Assembly (NCBI RefSeq): GCF_002197845.1
Contig: NZ_NIDE01000002.1
Coordinates: forward strand, 186,001 to 250,000
Direction of reading: 5' to 3'
From: Fimbriiglobus ruber
Lineage (GTDB): Bacteria; Planctomycetota; Planctomycetia; Gemmatales; Gemmataceae
DNA: 64,000 bases
Position 1 is the stretch's first letter, and every line of letters starts with the position of its first letter. Both the position numbers and the translations under genes were made by a program. The notes below the pieces were generated by a model. The model was not told the origin of the DNA and searched no databases. It worked only from the letters and a program-made list of their open reading frames with translations. Positions 42,368-47,059 of the stretch are shown piece after piece.

Positions 42368-43222
42368 TCACACGCAACAGAGCGGCCGGTGCGGAGACCG
42401 GGCCGGTCGATGGCTCCCAGACTTTTTCGGAGCAGGTCCGCGCCGGGGGTTCGATTGGTTTGGCGGGTTCACGGGTGCCGAGACGGGCGTGGGGCCAGAA
42501 GGGTTGGCGGCGCGATCGGCCGACCGCTCGGCCGGCGCGGGAACAGCGGCCGACCGGGGTTCGACCCGGTGAGACGTGCTGGGGCCAACGCCAGGGACCG
42601 GATTGGCGGCGGACGAAGCCGGCATCTCGCGGCCCGGGGCGCACGGTGCCGCGATCGGGCTGGTCGGAGTGGCCGGAGTTGCTGGTGTCGCCGGGACGGG
42701 GATCCGGACAGGCTCGGGCGAGTGGGCCGACTCGGTTGGCAGCGGGGAAATCGGTGACACGTCCTTCGACGAGTTCACCGTGCTATTCGCCGCGGCGACC
42801 GGCGGTTGTTGTTCGCTCGGTTCGGTATTCGGTTCCGCCAGGGCTGAGAGACGCATCAGTTCTTCGAGTTCGTCTTCGTCTTCGGCCGGCTCGAACGTCT
42901 TGTTTTTGGCGTATTCCGGGCAGTGCCGTTCGAGCCACCAGGCGGCCGCCTTCCAGTCCTTATGCGCGGCTTTCCGGACGATCTCGACGCATTCCAGGAC
43001 CGCTCTCGCCTCGGCCCGCAGGACGTTCACGCGAAATTCGCGGTACTCCAGGTCCGCGTTCGGCAACAGTCCGAGCCGGAGCCAGAGCTGGAGGGTGCGC
43101 GGGCTGACCCCGGCCCTCTCGGCCGCCGTCCTCCGGGTCGTCCCGCCCTCCAGCATCATCAGAATGATCTTCTGGGCCAGTGGCGTCAATTTGGTCGGGC
43201 GGCCCCGCTCTCCCTCGGCCAT
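42368..43222 (-). CDS. Helix-turn-helix protein, terminase-small-subunit-like, Pro-rich tail
   Basis: 284 residues. The first 95 residues are a helical DNA-binding domain: AQKIILMMLEGGTTRRTAAE then RAGVSPRTLQLWLRLG, and a second helix KAAHKDWKAAAWWLERHCPEY, the combination found in phage-type small terminase or related HTH proteins. From about 115 the chain turns into a Ser/Pro/Ala-rich low-complexity tail of about 165 residues, unusual for that family. No large terminase is nearby. Function is not established. Confidence 0.6.
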   Translation of the reverse strand: MAEGERGRPTKLTPLAQKIILMMLEGGTTRRTAAERAGVSPRTLQLWLRLGLLPNADLEYREFRVNVLRAEARAVLECVEIVRKAAHKDWKAAAWWLERHCPEYAKNKTFEPAEDEDELEELMRLSALAEPNTEPSEQQPPVAAANSTVNSSKDVSPISPLPTESAHSPEPVRIPVPATPATPATPTSPIAAPCAPGREMPASSAANPVPGVGPSTSHRVEPRSAAVPAPAERSADRAANPSGPTPVSAPVNPPNQSNPRRGPAPKKSGSHRPARSPHRPLCCV

Positions 43223-43795
43223 CGCGGCCCCTCCGGAACGTCATTCGCGGAATGCGGTCGTCTCCAACGCAGACTAACCTCCGCGGGGCGCGGCGGCGGG
43301 GATTTTCCTGCGGGTCATCGTGGGGCCGGGTGACCGGCGGGGATTTTTTGGTATTTTTTGCGCTAAAAACCGCGTTTCTGGCGGACATGCATGGGCAAGG
43401 ATCGCGATGGACCTGGATGCACGAGAACCGGGTCAAGCGGTTCCTGTAGGTTTAGGAGGTGTCGCGGCAGCACATTCCGAACTTCATATTGCCCGAGTCC
43501 GGATGACCTACGCCGTCTCCGGGTTCACCGGCGGGATGTTCGTCGGCTGACCGACCTGCACGCACGCCCTGGGATCGCGGCCAGGCTGGGGGCTTGACTG
43601 TATGTAGGCAGCCCAGGTGTCATCTCTTTACCCGATAACGGCCGCACCGGACCGTCCATGATCGCCAGCGTTTTCACGCAGGACGTTGTAGGGCAAGGGA
43701 ACACCGTGTAAAAACTTGGGCAGTTGGCTCATCATCTCACGTGCCTCGATTTCCTCATTTTCCGTGTTTCCGAGGAAAGTCAAACGGCCGCACCC
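43223..43795. other. 573-bp gene-free stretch with a degenerate repeat core
   Basis: No credible gene. At 43338-43385 GGGGATTTTTTGGTATTTTT resembles the core of the 81-82 bp repeat, followed by GCGCTAAAAACCGCGTTTCTGG in place of its G/C tail, so it is a probable single, diverged copy. Nothing else recognisable. Confidence 0.55.
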
Positions 43796-45007
43796 CTAAC
43801 CAGCCGGGTATTCCAATTCTGTCACGCTCTGGCGTGTAAGCCGCGCTTCAAAGTTGCGTTCGGCTTTGAGCCTCTCTGCGCTCGCGTCGTCCTCTGTTGA
43901 CCAACCCATGGCGTCGAGATAACCCAGTTCACAAACATCAATGGTGTCCGGTTCACTTTCCACGAACCCGATCCCGATCACCGTATCGCCCTTTCCGATC
44001 GTGTGCCGCGCCAGACCAATGCGATCGTTGAGCACGGCGAGACGATGATCGCGGTCTTCCGTGGGCTTGAAGAAGATGAGGACGTAGATGGCGCCGCTGT
44101 CACCACACATTGTTCGTGACCGGAACGGGGAGTTCATTGCCTGCTCGACGAACTCCCTCATCGCGCCCGCGAGCATTCGGCGGCTAAGCCGGTCCTCTCG
44201 GGCCATCACCCTCAAGGCGAGTTCCATTCCGGTGAATTGCCCTTCGGGCTCACCAAGGAGTTCCTTATTGGGACCGATGTACTGTTCGATCAGGCGGTCC
44301 CAATCGTAGCTGATTTTGTCCGCTTCTTTCTTTCGCTTGTAATCCTCGCGCTCCGTCAGACCTGGCCAGAACGTGTTGTCGATCATCAGGACGTCGACGT
44401 CGGCCGGGAACTTCTTGTTATTCAGGAGGTAGTAACCGAGGAGGTTTTTTTCTGGGCCGAGCACCAACGTCTTACACCCGGCACTCGTGCAGGCTTCCTT
44501 CGCTGCAAGGAATTTGATTAGGTCGGTGATGGTATCGAGTTCGGTGAGCAGGTCTTCAAACCCTCGCTCGGTCAGGATGTGAACATACCCTTTTCCGAGA
44601 TCGCCCGGCTTGATGGGCACTTCACCCTTGCCACCGATTGCGACGGCGATGCGGTGAACCCGTCGGGTTTCCAGTGGCGGTAAGCGCAGGCCCAAGGAGC
44701 CGTCCTTACGGACGACGCGGGTCGCATTTGCGAGCCACCGCTCTGCGCCGTAGATCTGCTTCACAGATTCATCGATTGCCCCGCGTTCCCACCGCTTGTT
44801 CGCGACGTCCGGATCCTTGTCTGTCTGGTATTGAATTTCTTTGACGCTAATGATGACGACGTGCGGGTCGCACACGACGAGGATGTCGCAGAGCTCTTTG
44901 CTGGCATTCTTCCCTTGCGGATTGTTGTCACACCAGAGGGAGAGGAATGATCGCTTGCAGACAGCCAGCACGAATGCTTCGGTCCTGTTGACGGGTGGTT
45001 GGTTCAC
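43796..45007 (-). CDS. Predicted PD-(D/E)XK-like nuclease, defence-associated
   Basis: 403 residues. The N-terminal segment (about 33-55) fits a restriction-nuclease core: Glu in ASKELCDILVVCDPHVV, then IISVKEIQY, giving an E-D-x(n)-S/V-K arrangement with Ser in place of the usual Glu before Lys. The rest (VRRAERW-type, NNKKFPADVDVLMIDNTFWPGL, DYKRKKEADKISYDWDRLIE) has no family I recognise. Located upstream in a three-gene cluster with a Shedu-like and an HNH gene, so a role in phage defence is an inference. Start ATG 45007. Confidence 0.5.
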   Translation of the reverse strand: MNQPPVNRTEAFVLAVCKRSFLSLWCDNNPQGKNASKELCDILVVCDPHVVIISVKEIQYQTDKDPDVANKRWERGAIDESVKQIYGAERWLANATRVVRKDGSLGLRLPPLETRRVHRIAVAIGGKGEVPIKPGDLGKGYVHILTERGFEDLLTELDTITDLIKFLAAKEACTSAGCKTLVLGPEKNLLGYYLLNNKKFPADVDVLMIDNTFWPGLTEREDYKRKKEADKISYDWDRLIEQYIGPNKELLGEPEGQFTGMELALRVMAREDRLSRRMLAGAMREFVEQAMNSPFRSRTMCGDSGAIYVLIFFKPTEDRDHRLAVLNDRIGLARHTIGKGDTVIGIGFVESEPDTIDVCELGYLDAMGWSTEDDASAERLKAERNFEARLTRQSVTELEYPAG

Positions 45008-45291
45008 GCAACATCCTCCAAGAGCCGCGGAATTCGCGTAATGGCTGTCTGTGTAAAGGACGGCTTTGGCGACGTTCGGGTTCGGTTATTTTACCCCTGC
45101 CAGCTGCTTGTGGGTAACATGGCGGCCGTGATTCGGGAAGACGCCGGCGGAAGGGCGGTCCGTCTTAGAACGAAGCCGAGAGAGCGACTGCACACATGGG
45201 AGAGTGGGCGGTGCGAAAGCCGGGCTGGCCGAAGGACCAGATCCTTCGGATCGGGTCCGCGCCTGGAGTGCAATAGGCTTGGTGGATTGCG

Positions 45292-45921
45292 TTAGACTGA
45301 GAGCTGACCTTCCGCGTTGTCAACTAAGAAATCAAAGCTGTGAAAACGGATATTAAGGTCATCTGACATCTGGCGGCGGATCTCTTTTGTCGAATCGTCG
45401 TTGAAACTACGTCTGCCCATTAAGACCAGCCCTTCGATGCGAGCAGTGATATCTGTGAGGCCTAATCCGTTCTCGGCGACGGAACGTGCGGCGTAATTCT
45501 GGTTTTTGACCAACCATGCCCTCCAGTCCTGAATCTGCTTAATCGCGTGCGTCAGATTCGCAGAAGGATTACCTGCCTTCGTGAACATCCGAGACTTCGG
45601 GCTCTCCAATTCGACCGCTTGCCATCGGAATCCATCCGAATTCCTGTCCCCAATCACGAAATCTGTGATGAATTCCGAGCCGAATTTCTTCTTCGGAATG
45701 ACCCAGCGACCGTGTCCACCGCCTAAATGCCGAATCAACAGATTTGCGTTAACGGTCAAAAATTGTTGCAAATCTTCCTCCCTGCTTGCAGTAGCGAGAC
45801 AGCGTTTCAGTGCATTCACATCCTTCTTCCTCACACCCATCCACCAGACGAAGTATTCGCGCAGCGGCATCCTGGCGAGAATGGCTTCGCGTTTTGTGGG
45901 ACTGATAGATTTGAAATCCAT
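45292..45921 (-). CDS. Shedu-like (DUF4263) nuclease
   Basis: 209 residues. DUF4263/SduA-type region: EEDLQQFLTVNANLLIRHLGG, SEFITDFVIGDRNSDG and RWQAVELESPKSRMFTKAGNP, then LTHAIKQIQDWRAWLVKN. The core has D (DFVIGD) and the E of VELE, while the position usually Lys in E-x-K is Glu, with the Lys three residues on. Single-gene Shedu systems protect against phage (known of the family). Start is ATG 45921, 26 bp after the HNH gene's stop, same strand; both use more A/T at third positions than the window average. Likely co-transcribed. Confidence 0.75.
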   Translation of the reverse strand: MDFKSISPTKREAILARMPLREYFVWWMGVRKKDVNALKRCLATASREEDLQQFLTVNANLLIRHLGGGHGRWVIPKKKFGSEFITDFVIGDRNSDGFRWQAVELESPKSRMFTKAGNPSANLTHAIKQIQDWRAWLVKNQNYAARSVAENGLGLTDITARIEGLVLMGRRSFNDDSTKEIRRQMSDDLNIRFHSFDFLVDNAEGQLSV

Positions 45922-45947
45922 ATAAGCGACTCATGTTTCGAGCGTAG

Positions 45948-46712
45948 TTATACGATTCCTGGACCTGGTGTGGCTGCGATAAGGAAAATCTGACCACCAA
46001 GTTTGATGATGCCAGGGTTCGTCGGGTGGACAACGGCTATGGTCGCCACTTCCCAATCGAATGCAGTGTTATTCGTTTTCAGTTTCATCTTGCGAACCTC
46101 CCGCAAACCAAAAACCAGTAGCCCTGCCGCTTCGATGCCTTTGATTTCATCGGTTAGCATAAATCTTGCTTTCACATGCTGCCCGCTATCCATTTCCGAC
46201 CAGGTTTCGCCCCAATCTTGAAGGTTTTGAAGGAAGCCGGCAACCAACTCTACTTCTTCCTCAGTGTTCTGTTCGTCGTGATCGAACGAAAAAACATGAG
46301 CATCGCCGATAATGTTCGCAATGTCTTTCCCAGTCTTGATCTGGTAAAGCTGTATGAATTGGGGCTGTCCTTGAGTCGACTTATTGCTAAGCCGCTCCTT
46401 TACCCACCGCTCATGGGCAGCCTTCATCTCGCGGAGTTTCTCGATCGGGTACGTCTCAGGTTGGTCATCCACCTTTTTGTGGTGGACCTTGCACAGCAGG
46501 ATTAGGTTGTTGTACTCATCGATATCATTCCGCCCCACGCCCATCTCCCCGCGGGCCGCCGTCGGCCGCTCACCGATGATGTGGCACTCGTCACCGACAA
46601 CCGATTCCGAGTCGTACTGCGTCTCACTTTCGATGAGAACTCGTCGGCAATAGGCGCATGAATTGCCCGATCGACCCCAGAGAATTTTCCGTGTTCTGTC
46701 GGAGATGGCCAC
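45948..46712 (-). CDS. HNH endonuclease domain protein
   Basis: 254 residues. N-terminal HNH: two CxxC-type pairs (CAYCRRV; LLCKVHHKK) with the motif DECHIIGERP giving the catalytic His, and the Asn/His of NNLILLCKVHH. The remainder is a mixed domain with QFIQLYQIKTGKDIANIIGD. In defence clusters such proteins cut phage DNA. Precedes the Shedu-like gene. ATG 46712; the sequence in this and the Shedu gene is AT-richer than neighbouring housekeeping genes. Confidence 0.8.
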   Translation of the reverse strand: MAISDRTRKILWGRSGNSCAYCRRVLIESETQYDSESVVGDECHIIGERPTAARGEMGVGRNDIDEYNNLILLCKVHHKKVDDQPETYPIEKLREMKAAHERWVKERLSNKSTQGQPQFIQLYQIKTGKDIANIIGDAHVFSFDHDEQNTEEEVELVAGFLQNLQDWGETWSEMDSGQHVKARFMLTDEIKGIEAAGLLVFGLREVRKMKLKTNNTAFDWEVATIAVVHPTNPGIIKLGGQIFLIAATPGPGIV

Positions 46713-46981
46713 AATTCCCCCACCGATGATATCGCGATTCCTTTTCCAGCGAATATCAGACTATTTCTAATGATCCTCGATAACGAGCTCAGTTAAAAGC
46801 TCGGTGGTAGTCAATCTTCACCAAAATCTAATATCTGTGGTGGCTTTTCACCAGGTGTGCAATCACTTCTAGCAACGCGGCCTCGCACGTTTCGGCCTAG
46901 AAAAGCCCGTGAGGATTCGCTGGCGTTCCTCATCCCGACATCGCCCCTTCCTCCCGCCCCCTGCCCGTTACAATCCCCCTC

Positions 46982-47059
46982 ATGACTCTGCTCAAGATTG
47001 CCGGCGGCACGGTAGACTTGTTGCGAAATAGCGGGCTTGTGGTTACGCGGGCGGAATGA
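46982..47059 (+). pseudogene. N-terminal stub of an amidohydrolase-like gene
   Basis: From ATG 46982 the first eleven residues read MTLLKIAGGTV, the opening strand typical of amidohydrolase proteins, including planctomycete formylmethanofuran dehydrogenase A. A TACAAT-like box precedes it 16 bp upstream. The frame then enters the IS remnant at 47013 and stops at 47059. Only this stub is left; the parent is not determined. Confidence 0.45.

What the first reader, a model, noticed from the sequence alone, without database searches (positions are those of the whole stretch)
43796..46712. Three adjacent nuclease-like genes: probable defence island
Within 3 kb on one strand lie a PD-(D/E)XK-like protein with unknown remainder, a Shedu-like DUF4263 protein and an HNH protein; the last two are 26 bp apart. 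An IS remnant and gene-poor DNA flank them, as is typical of accessory islands. The 403-residue protein has no family I recognise beyond its nuclease-like start, so it could be a new component.
Basis: partly seen in the sequence, partly recalled or inferred. Interest (0 to 1): 0.65.

Follow-up and report, generated by a model that had tools for sequence, protein, structure and literature searches.

The report
Three independent nuclease genes, one pocket
A bacterium of the planctomycete group carries three neighbouring, foreign-looking nuclease-type genes that are probably separate anti-invader weapons collected in one spot rather than one machine; one of them belongs to a widespread family of unknown function.

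Summary
The three genes are real, on the minus strand: HNH (P3, 254 aa), 26 bp, Shedu-like (P2, 209 aa), 284 bp, then the 403-aa protein (P1). Their G+C (0.52, 0.50, 0.57; window 0.65) marks a foreign pocket. P2 has the Shedu SduA_C domain. P3 has the HNH domain of CBASS-type endonucleases plus an unnamed C-terminal part. P1 matches no Pfam, NCBIfam or PADLOC model, but a confident AlphaFold model has a PD-(D/E)XK-type fold in about residues 1-169, with conserved E10, E38, D41 and K56; its C-terminal half has no clear known fold. P1 is a broad family (179 relatives in one species-level scan, 140 plasmid records, phrog_18195 of unknown function). In another genome an 85%-identical P1 occurs without the other two; the shared DNA is only the gene and 89 bp upstream. 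Best reading: three independently moving nuclease genes gathered in an accessory pocket, with no conserved partnership. Anti-phage or anti-plasmid function is inferred, not shown.

The parts
43796..45007 (-). P1, 403 aa: PD-(D/E)XK-type nuclease domain (about residues 1-169), a linking part, then a conserved C-terminal alpha/beta part of no clear known fold (about 203-403)
   Evidence: ORF; AlphaFold model mean pLDDT 89.7; VIA-align Z 9.6 to R.BspD6I2, 8.8 to Can2, 7.6 to McrBC, all within residues 1-191; motif residues in relatives; C-terminal part alone best Z 5.1; phrog_18195 E 4e-22
45008..45096 (-). 89 bp upstream of P1 that is shared together with P1 in genome G302 (85% over the whole shared stretch), so possibly P1's own promoter region
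   Evidence: blastn window 43801-45096 against G302; homology stops at both ends. No sigma-70-type promoter was found by the consensus scan
45292..45921 (-). P2, 209 aa: minimal Shedu-like protein, DUF4263/SduA_C core at residues 46-199, 45 residues before it
   Evidence: Pfam SduA_C 60.4 bits; PADLOC SduA; D87, E104-x-E106 and Q129 shared by the 12 aligned sequences
45948..46712 (-). P3, 254 aa: HNH endonuclease domain (about 1-113) of the CBASS effector / PDC-M68A type plus an unnamed C-terminal part (about 115-235)
   Evidence: Pfam HNH_2 and PADLOC PDC-M68A E 1e-30; PDB 9om4 'HNH endonuclease' E 1e-30 on residues 1-111; C19, C22, H44, N69, C74, H78 invariant in P3 and 3 relatives

Best explanation
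The pocket holds two or three separately acquired accessory genes, each a nuclease with its own (probably invader-sensing) extra part. P1 is a separately moving gene: an N-terminal PD-(D/E)XK-type domain that would cut nucleic acid with metal ions held by E38 and D41 and with K56, held in check or aimed by its C-terminal part. P2 is a minimal Shedu-type nuclease. P3 is an HNH nuclease whose C-terminal part probably switches it on. P3 and P2 are likely one transcript here, but this pairing was not found elsewhere. The likeliest role of all three is defence against phages, plasmids or other mobile DNA. Shown: the genes, the domains, the predicted fold, the motif conservation, the lack of co-occurrence, and P1 occurring without the others. 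Inferred: DNA cleavage, sensing, transcription units, defence role.
For: Independence (counts include the window's own genome): P1 relatives in 2 of 294 phylum and 4 of 95 family genomes, P2 in 5 of 294 and 2 of 95, P3 (mostly HNH domain only) in 18 of 294 and 9 of 95. G302 has P1 at 85%, no P2 match, and only an HNH-domain match 1.8 Mb away. G382 has P3 at 65% full length and no P2 match. In 80 loci of P1 relatives (873 kb) P2 was found in 0 and P3-type HNH in 1. In 12 P2 loci (11 distinct proteins) P3 was found in 0. P1 DNA homology with G302 covers only the gene plus 89 bp upstream, 183 bp from an integrase-like gene (weak match to an annotated tyrosine recombinase, E 5e-4) and 1.8 kb from a tRNA-Lys gene. 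P1 relatives lie on 140 plasmid records, 89 typed conjugative, some near integrases or between transposases. Among 100 close neighbours of P1 relatives no Pfam family occurs more than twice. Nuclease fold; motif. Defence-library matches of P2 and P3; a Shedu member protecting against phage is described in PMC12137116 (passages).
Against: No activity is shown. Foldseek finds no significant solved relative of P1 (best E 0.02); VIA Z of 8-10 is only moderately above the level the tool warns about. P1 has S54-x-K56 where (D/E)-x-K is usual, and P2 has E104-x-E106 where the lysine is usual. P1 relatives are not always isolated: by my gene of 80 have a same-strand gene less than 50 bp upstream and 15 of 80 one downstream, and one neighbour family (a 533-536 aa protein 42-46 bp downstream) recurs in 4 of 80 loci, three Psychrobacter and one Pseudoteredinibacter; in L065 the gene 6 bp upstream matches CBASS E1-E2 models. 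L064 has a P1 relative between a PDC-S02-type nuclease gene and an HNH gene. G382 (84% complete, 770 contigs) holds a distant P1 relative on a 5.5-kb contig, so closeness to its P3 is not fully excluded. Only 6 of 140 plasmid matches to P1 cover 80% or more of it. Neighbours of P1 relatives include housekeeping genes (enolase, GidA, Cpn60).
Confidence: 0.55

Rival explanations
1. One three-gene defence system in which P1 is a new component acting with the HNH and Shedu-like proteins.
For: Same strand, within 3 kb, all nuclease-type. By rough arithmetic of mine three such rare genes would hardly meet by chance; one other locus, L064, has a P1 relative next to an HNH gene.
Against: 284 bp gap that includes an upstream stretch shared with P1 alone in G302; 0 of 80 P1 loci with P2, 1 of 80 with P3-type HNH; P1 at 85% in G302 without P2 and without a P3 relative nearby.
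Confidence: 0.06
2. P3 and P2 are a true two-gene HNH-Shedu system, P1 being separate: the HNH protein or its C-terminal part senses, the Shedu core cuts, or both cut.
For: 26 bp spacing, same strand, similar low G+C. A PADLOC profile named SduA (PDLC00406) matches the HNH domain of P3 (E 8e-9) while P2 does not match it, which may hint at HNH-containing Shedu proteins elsewhere.
Against: 0 of 12 P2 loci with P3-type HNH, flanks 1.5-4 kb. The three other near-full-length P3 relatives (G382, Nonomuraea, Citricoccus) have no P2 relative beside them. G382's P3 sits 82 bp before a different gene that no Pfam or PADLOC model matches. All these samples are small.
Confidence: 0.19
3. P1 is a nuclease with another job on mobile elements: plasmid or transposon competition, homing, recombination or repair rather than host defence.
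For: Relatives on 140 plasmid records, one beside an integrase-like gene, some between transposases; a phage family, phrog_18195, matches it.
Against: Defence genes are carried by mobile elements too. In 80 loci only 3 had a tyrosine-recombinase and 4 a serine-recombinase relative of my few seeds (few seeds, so a lower bound), so P1 is not tied to one mobility gene.
Confidence: 0.2
4. Inactive relics of past transfers, kept by chance.
For: Gene-poor flanks; unconventional S-x-K (P1) and E-x-E (P2) motifs.
Against: All three frames are intact. The unconventional residues are shared widely, S54 in 54 of 54 close relatives (12 of 14 in a wider set) and E106 in 12 of 12, so they look like family traits and not decay. 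P3 keeps its HNH residues.
Confidence: 0.07

Closest known systems
Shedu (SduA, DUF4263)
   Same: P2 has the SduA_C core (60.4 bits, cut-off 27) and matches nine PADLOC SduA models.
   Different: Only 45 residues precede the core, no obvious sensor domain; E104-x-E106 in place of E-x-K, shared by the 12 aligned sequences, three of them annotated as Shedu immune nuclease.
CBASS HNH-SAVED endonuclease (Cap5 type)
   Same: P3 residues 1-113 match its HNH half.
   Different: No SAVED match; the C-terminal part differs; no nucleotidyltransferase among the seven flanking genes scanned.
PADLOC candidate PDC-M68A and HNH proteins of ABC-three-component loci
   Same: PDC-M68A is the best PADLOC hit of P3, 105 bits. 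HNH-domain relatives of P3 in planctomycetes include loci with a small middle gene and a large ATPase-type gene (the ABC-3C label rests on one annotated plasmid hit, and recall).
   Different: Only the HNH half matches; P3 has no such partners.
PD-(D/E)XK nucleases R.BspD6I small subunit, Can2, McrBC, SduA
   Same: The N-terminal part of P1 aligns at Z 9.6, 8.8, 7.6 and 6.1 (rmsd 4.3, 3.3, 3.7, 4.3 A; 151, 124, 127, 140 residues).
   Different: 10-17% identity; S-x-K in place of (D/E)-x-K in most relatives; different C-terminal half.
NERD domain (PF08378)
   Same: 6 of 54 P1 relatives match at E 0.01 or better.
   Different: The window protein itself does not pass (12.4 bits against 22.1).
phrog_18195 (unknown function)
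   Same: P1 matches at E 4e-22.
   Different: No function is given; a tblastn of 50,697 phage records with P1 found no match at E 1e-3, and viral contigs gave one.

Membership tests
Shedu (P2) | SduA_C / DUF4263 domain above curated cut-off | tested here: met
   60.4 bits against 27
Shedu (P2) | Catalytic D...E-x-K of a PD-(D/E)XK core | tested here: inconclusive
   D87 and E104 present, lysine replaced by E106, in 12 of 12 aligned sequences; a lysine nine residues on (K115) in 9 of 12 by eye. Which lysine matches the essential K557 of VcSduA (passage) was not aligned.
Shedu (P2) | N-terminal regulatory domain | tested here: inconclusive
   Core starts at residue 46; short for a sensor domain, a small one not excluded
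Shedu (P2) | Anti-phage activity | not testable with these tools
   needs bench work
CBASS HNH-SAVED effector (P3) | HNH nuclease domain | tested here: met
CBASS HNH-SAVED effector (P3) | SAVED domain | tested here: not met
   matches of the SAVED_HNH and Effector models end by P3 residue 137; beyond the HNH the only Pfam row is DUF5601 at E 0.17
CBASS HNH-SAVED effector (P3) | CD-NTase gene next door | tested here: not met
   seven flanking window genes between 39.8 and 52.7 kb scanned against Pfam show none
PD-(D/E)XK superfamily (P1) | Restriction-endonuclease-like fold | tested here: met
   model pLDDT 89.7; most of the top VIA rows are such nucleases, first Z 9.6; Foldseek alone was not significant
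PD-(D/E)XK superfamily (P1) | Acidic pair plus (D/E)-x-K | tested here: inconclusive
   54-row alignment: E10 53 of 53 ungapped, E38 and D41 53 of 54, K56 54 of 54, S54 in place of the acid 54 of 54. 14-row alignment not drawn by the peptide patterns: E10 13 of 13 ungapped, E38 and D41 14 of 14, K56 13 of 14, S54 12 of 14
NERD family (P1) | Pfam NERD above cut-off | tested here: not met
   12.4 bits against 22.1
Joint system with Shedu and HNH (P1) | Recurrent genomic association | tested here: not met
   0 of 80 with P2, 1 of 80 with P3-type HNH

The most novel reading that the evidence does not exclude
P1 founds a widespread, unnamed family of one-gene anti-invader nucleases: a PD-(D/E)XK-type domain that mostly has S-x-K in place of (D/E)-x-K, joined to a C-terminal sensing or regulating domain of new fold, spread gene by gene on plasmids and integrative islands through bacteria and some archaea.
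Probability: 0.33. Interest if true: 0.6.

Novelty: new variant of a known kind. Interest (0 to 1): 0.4.

Why it matters
If true, a gene now annotated only as 'hypothetical' or 'SEC-C metal-binding protein' on many plasmids, conjugative ones of enterobacteria included, would be a single-gene nuclease barrier against other mobile DNA or phages. That would bear on plasmid spread and host range, and a one-gene family is easy to test. It also shows that neighbourhood alone can suggest a false multi-gene system: independent nuclease genes can pile up in one pocket.

Tried and rejected
Profile searches of P1: Pfam, PADLOC and NCBIfam gave nothing significant for the window protein. Over 54 relatives Pfam gave SEC-C in 6, weak NERD in 6 and one HNOB; NCBIfam mostly SEC-C-type models in up to 6, plus single stray rows. 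PADLOC matches to CBASS E2/E1-E2 models and PDC-S12 in 2 to 6 of the 54 are probably the shared SEC-C motif, not defence membership (inference, not checked). Sequence search of the PDB with P1 or P2 found nothing useful. The viral structure library gave no row at E 0.001 or better; many of the weak rows are PD-(D/E)XK nucleases. The C-terminal part of P1 folded alone (pLDDT 88.0) found no clear fold: best VIA Z 5.1 to the phosphopentomutase cap region, with RecE- and Cas4-like nucleases among weak Foldseek rows; not taken as evidence. Viral contigs: none confirmed for P2 or P3, one for P1. Empty-site test in the two congeners: synteny too worn to decide. The consensus scan of 43400-47000 found no promoter-like site and no terminator-like site on the minus strand; the hairpin after P2 is not stronger than shuffles. 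No Rfam family in 42-50 kb. Defence-gene enrichment around P1 relatives could not be measured: the PADLOC scan of 100 neighbours lists families, not members, and no control set was run. Those 100 were the direct neighbours of 140-1099 aa less than 400 bp away; others were dropped. Ten proteins chosen by me (seven of them neighbours of P1 relatives loci, one beside P1 in G302, one beside P3 in G382, plus the L064 HNH) were scanned singly with PADLOC; 3 matched at 1e-6. The integrase-like gene in G302 had no PDB match and no clear match to the Xanthomonas integrase; its label rests and reading by eye. The 54-row alignment uses the window protein and 53 of the 80 loci; 27 (truncated, split, near-identical or poorly called genes) were left out by my choice, and since each hit had to contain one of two peptide patterns (over residues 37-45 and 84-91), conservation of E38, D41 and Q84 there is partly by construction; 27 rows match only the first-named stretch, 10 only the second, 17 both. 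Literature: searches with SEC-C and nuclease terms gave two papers unrelated by title and none; a broader one listed 12 rows, none holding a SEC-C term; '9OM4' found none. Shedu with HNH and DUF4263 gave one paper, whose HNH passage concerns another protein, GrwA. Of the two Shedu structure papers in its reference list, Gu et al. is not held and Loeff et al. was not looked up.
Full report
OBSERVATION. The three open frames are as described. On the minus strand the order is P3 (HNH, 46712 to 45948), 26 bp, P2 (Shedu-like, 45921 to 45292), 284 bp, P1 (45007 to 43796). G+C is 0.52, 0.50 and 0.57 for P3, P2 and P1, against 0.65 for the window, 0.66-0.69 for the two genes to the left and 0.59-0.64 for the two to the right. 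To the left lie an HTH protein, a GT87 glycosyltransferase and an ABC-2 permease; to the right a ChrR-type cupin, two sigma-70-type (ECF-like) genes and an FG-GAP/Calx-beta surface protein. So the pocket is foreign in composition, about 4 kb long, and sits among ordinary genes. The 'IS remnant' could not be confirmed: the right flank has only two short repeats.

P2. Pfam SduA_C covers residues 46-199 at 60.4 bits, cut-off 27, and nine PADLOC SduA models match. In 12 aligned sequences, P2 included, the core reads D...E-(L/I)-E instead of E-x-K. This looks like a family trait, not decay. Plasmid relatives read (Rhodococcus, Streptomyces, Leptospira, Sebaldella, Kosakonia, Klebsiella) have no P3 relative in their 2-4 kb flanks, though several have hypothetical genes close by.

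P3. Residues 1-113 are an HNH domain close to PDC-M68A (105 bits) and to CBASS HNH effectors, and to PDB entry 9om4 (E 1e-30). The C-terminal part matches no library model above noise. Near-full-length relatives found: G382 (65%), Nonomuraea gerenzanensis (31%, residues 1-249) and Citricoccus (34%, residues 1-202). The C-terminal part alone finds Citricoccus but not Nonomuraea at E 1, so the latter kinship rests mainly on the HNH half. In 347 class genomes searched with a profile of these four, 36 matches were listed and only two, the window's own and G382, cover the whole model; the others lie in the HNH part (at most 7 candidates were scored per genome). A related C-terminal part (27% over 118 residues, E 2e-10) is fused to a helix-turn-helix that I read as XRE-type in another planctomycete genome, G178, which suggests a portable sensing or regulating domain (inference).

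P1. No Pfam, NCBIfam or PADLOC model matches the window protein; phrog_18195, of unknown function, does (E 4e-22). Relatives are found in 140 of 72,556 plasmid records, 6 of them covering 80% or more of the query, 89 on plasmids typed conjugative; those read are annotated 'hypothetical' or 'SEC-C metal-binding'. A scan of one genome per species with two peptide patterns gave 179 relatives, the best 80 kept, among them Opitutaceae, cyanobacteria, Gemmatimonadetes, Acidobacteria, Bacteroidota, Proteobacteria and two archaea. In an alignment of 54 sequences (the window's and 53 of the 80) E10 is kept in 53 of 53 ungapped rows, E38, D41 and Q84 in 53 of 54, S54, K56 and R72 in 54 of 54. E38, D41 and Q84 lie in the search patterns, so their conservation there is partly by construction. 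In the 14-row alignment made without those patterns E38, D41 and R72 are kept in 14 of 14, K56 in 13 of 14, S54 in 12 of 14, with Q and F as the exceptions. AlphaFold with the 54 rows gives pLDDT 89.7 and pTM 0.89. Foldseek alone finds nothing significant in the PDB, but most of VIA-align's top rows are PD-(D/E)XK nucleases on the N-terminal part: R.BspD6I small subunit Z 9.6, Can2 8.8, McrBC 7.6, E. coli SduA 6.1. Fold and motif agree, so I take the nuclease fold as well supported and catalysis as probable. The C-terminal part folded alone (pLDDT 88.0) has no clear solved counterpart.

DO THEY BELONG TOGETHER? Genome counts, the window's own genome included: P1 2 of 294 phylum and 4 of 95 family genomes; P2 5 of 294 and 2 of 95; P3 18 of 294 and 9 of 95, mostly HNH-domain only. 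G302 has P1 at 85% over its full length, no P2 match, and only an HNH-domain match 1.8 Mb away. There the shared DNA is the gene and 89 bp upstream (window 43801-45096), near an integrase-like gene (weakly supported), a DUF4427 gene and a tRNA-Lys gene. G382 has P3 at 65% next to a different gene and no P2 match; it also has a distant P1 relative on a separate 5.5-kb contig. In 80 loci of P1 relatives (873 kb in all) P2 relatives number 0 and P3-type HNH 1. In 12 P2 loci P3 relatives number 0. These were single-sequence tblastn searches, so distant relatives could be missed. So no conserved three-gene system was found, and no sign of a conserved P2-P3 pair in the few loci available.

IS P1 SOLITARY? 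No partner is conserved across the family: among 100 close neighbours no Pfam family occurs more than twice, and in an all-against-all comparison of 386 neighbours the largest groups span 4 of 80 loci. But P1 relatives are not always isolated: by my rough gene of 80 have a same-strand gene under 50 bp upstream and 15 of 80 one downstream. A 533-536 aa protein follows P1 at 42-46 bp in three Psychrobacter and one Pseudoteredinibacter locus, and a CBASS E1-E2-like gene precedes it by 6 bp in Anabaena (L065). Local partners are therefore possible.

WHY ARE THEY NEIGHBOURS? By rough arithmetic of mine (20 P3-type matches in some 1.5-1.8 billion bases; genome sizes averaged by eye) about 0.01 HNH hits would be expected in 873 kb, and one was seen, in L064. 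There a P1 relative lies between a PDC-S02-type nuclease gene and an HNH gene. Rare nuclease genes thus may cluster more than chance, as expected of accessory or defence pockets, while the partners differ from genome to genome. This is weak evidence (one case) but fits the picture.

MECHANISM. Shown: domains, predicted fold, conserved residues, lack of co-occurrence, P1 occurring without the others. Inferred: P1 cuts nucleic acid in a metal-dependent way through E38, D41 and K56, and its C-terminal part recognises the invader or restrains the nuclease; P2 works as other Shedu nucleases; P3 cuts DNA when its C-terminal part is triggered. The VcSduA study (PMC12137116, passages read) reports that a Shedu member with another N-terminal domain protects against phage and needs its nuclease lysine, which makes a defence role for P2 reasonable, not proven.

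KNOWN OR NEW. P2 is a minimal Shedu-like protein. P3 is an HNH protein of the broad CBASS/PDC-M68A type with a different C-terminal part, and not a CBASS effector by the features tested. P1 belongs to a broad family that, as far as my searches of the libraries and papers show, has no function assigned. The overall label is a new variant of a known kind, because the most novel part is still a nuclease of a known fold class.

Noticed in passing
L017 1426-2133 (genome G178): A relative of P3's C-terminal part is fused to a helix-turn-helix (XRE-type by eye) in a planctomycete: perhaps a portable sensing domain used both by a nuclease and by a regulator.
   Followed up: partly
L064 2132-5465 (Opitutaceae MAG): Another trio of nuclease genes: PDC-S02-type nuclease (YhcG-like by recall), P1 relative, HNH protein, all on one strand.
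   Followed up: partly
L079, L083, L125, L130 (Psychrobacter, Pseudoteredinibacter): A 533-536 aa protein gene follows the P1 relative at 42-46 bp in four loci: a possible local partner.
   Followed up: no
L065 4873-7209 (Anabaena lutea): A gene with a CBASS E1-E2-type match ends 6 bp before the P1 relative.
   Followed up: no
L051 7453-9088 (genome G382): The 65% P3 relative is followed 82 bp later by a 262-aa gene whose N-terminus looks HNH-like by eye but matches no Pfam or PADLOC model; the region also has ParA- and plasmid-replication-like genes by eye.
   Followed up: partly
L050 6875-11313 (genome G302): P1's 85% relative lies between an integrase-like gene and a tRNA-Lys gene, with a DUF4427 protein gene: probably an integrative island.
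   Followed up: partly
PADLOC model PDLC00406 'SduA': This Shedu-labelled profile matches the HNH domain of P3 and not P2, hinting at HNH-containing proteins filed under Shedu.
   Followed up: no
L032, L058 (plasmid loci): P1 relatives lie near efflux-pump or macrolide-resistance genes on plasmids, in one case between transposase genes; described only.
   Followed up: no
window 43510-43554: A 45-bp stretch with many partial copies in the genome; in the two copies read it lies at the ends of surface-protein genes (FG-GAP type by eye).
   Followed up: partly
window 43223-43412: About 190 bp left of the pocket, upstream of the HTH gene 42368-43222, has 76-81% copies elsewhere in the genome, so this region is repeated.
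   Followed up: no
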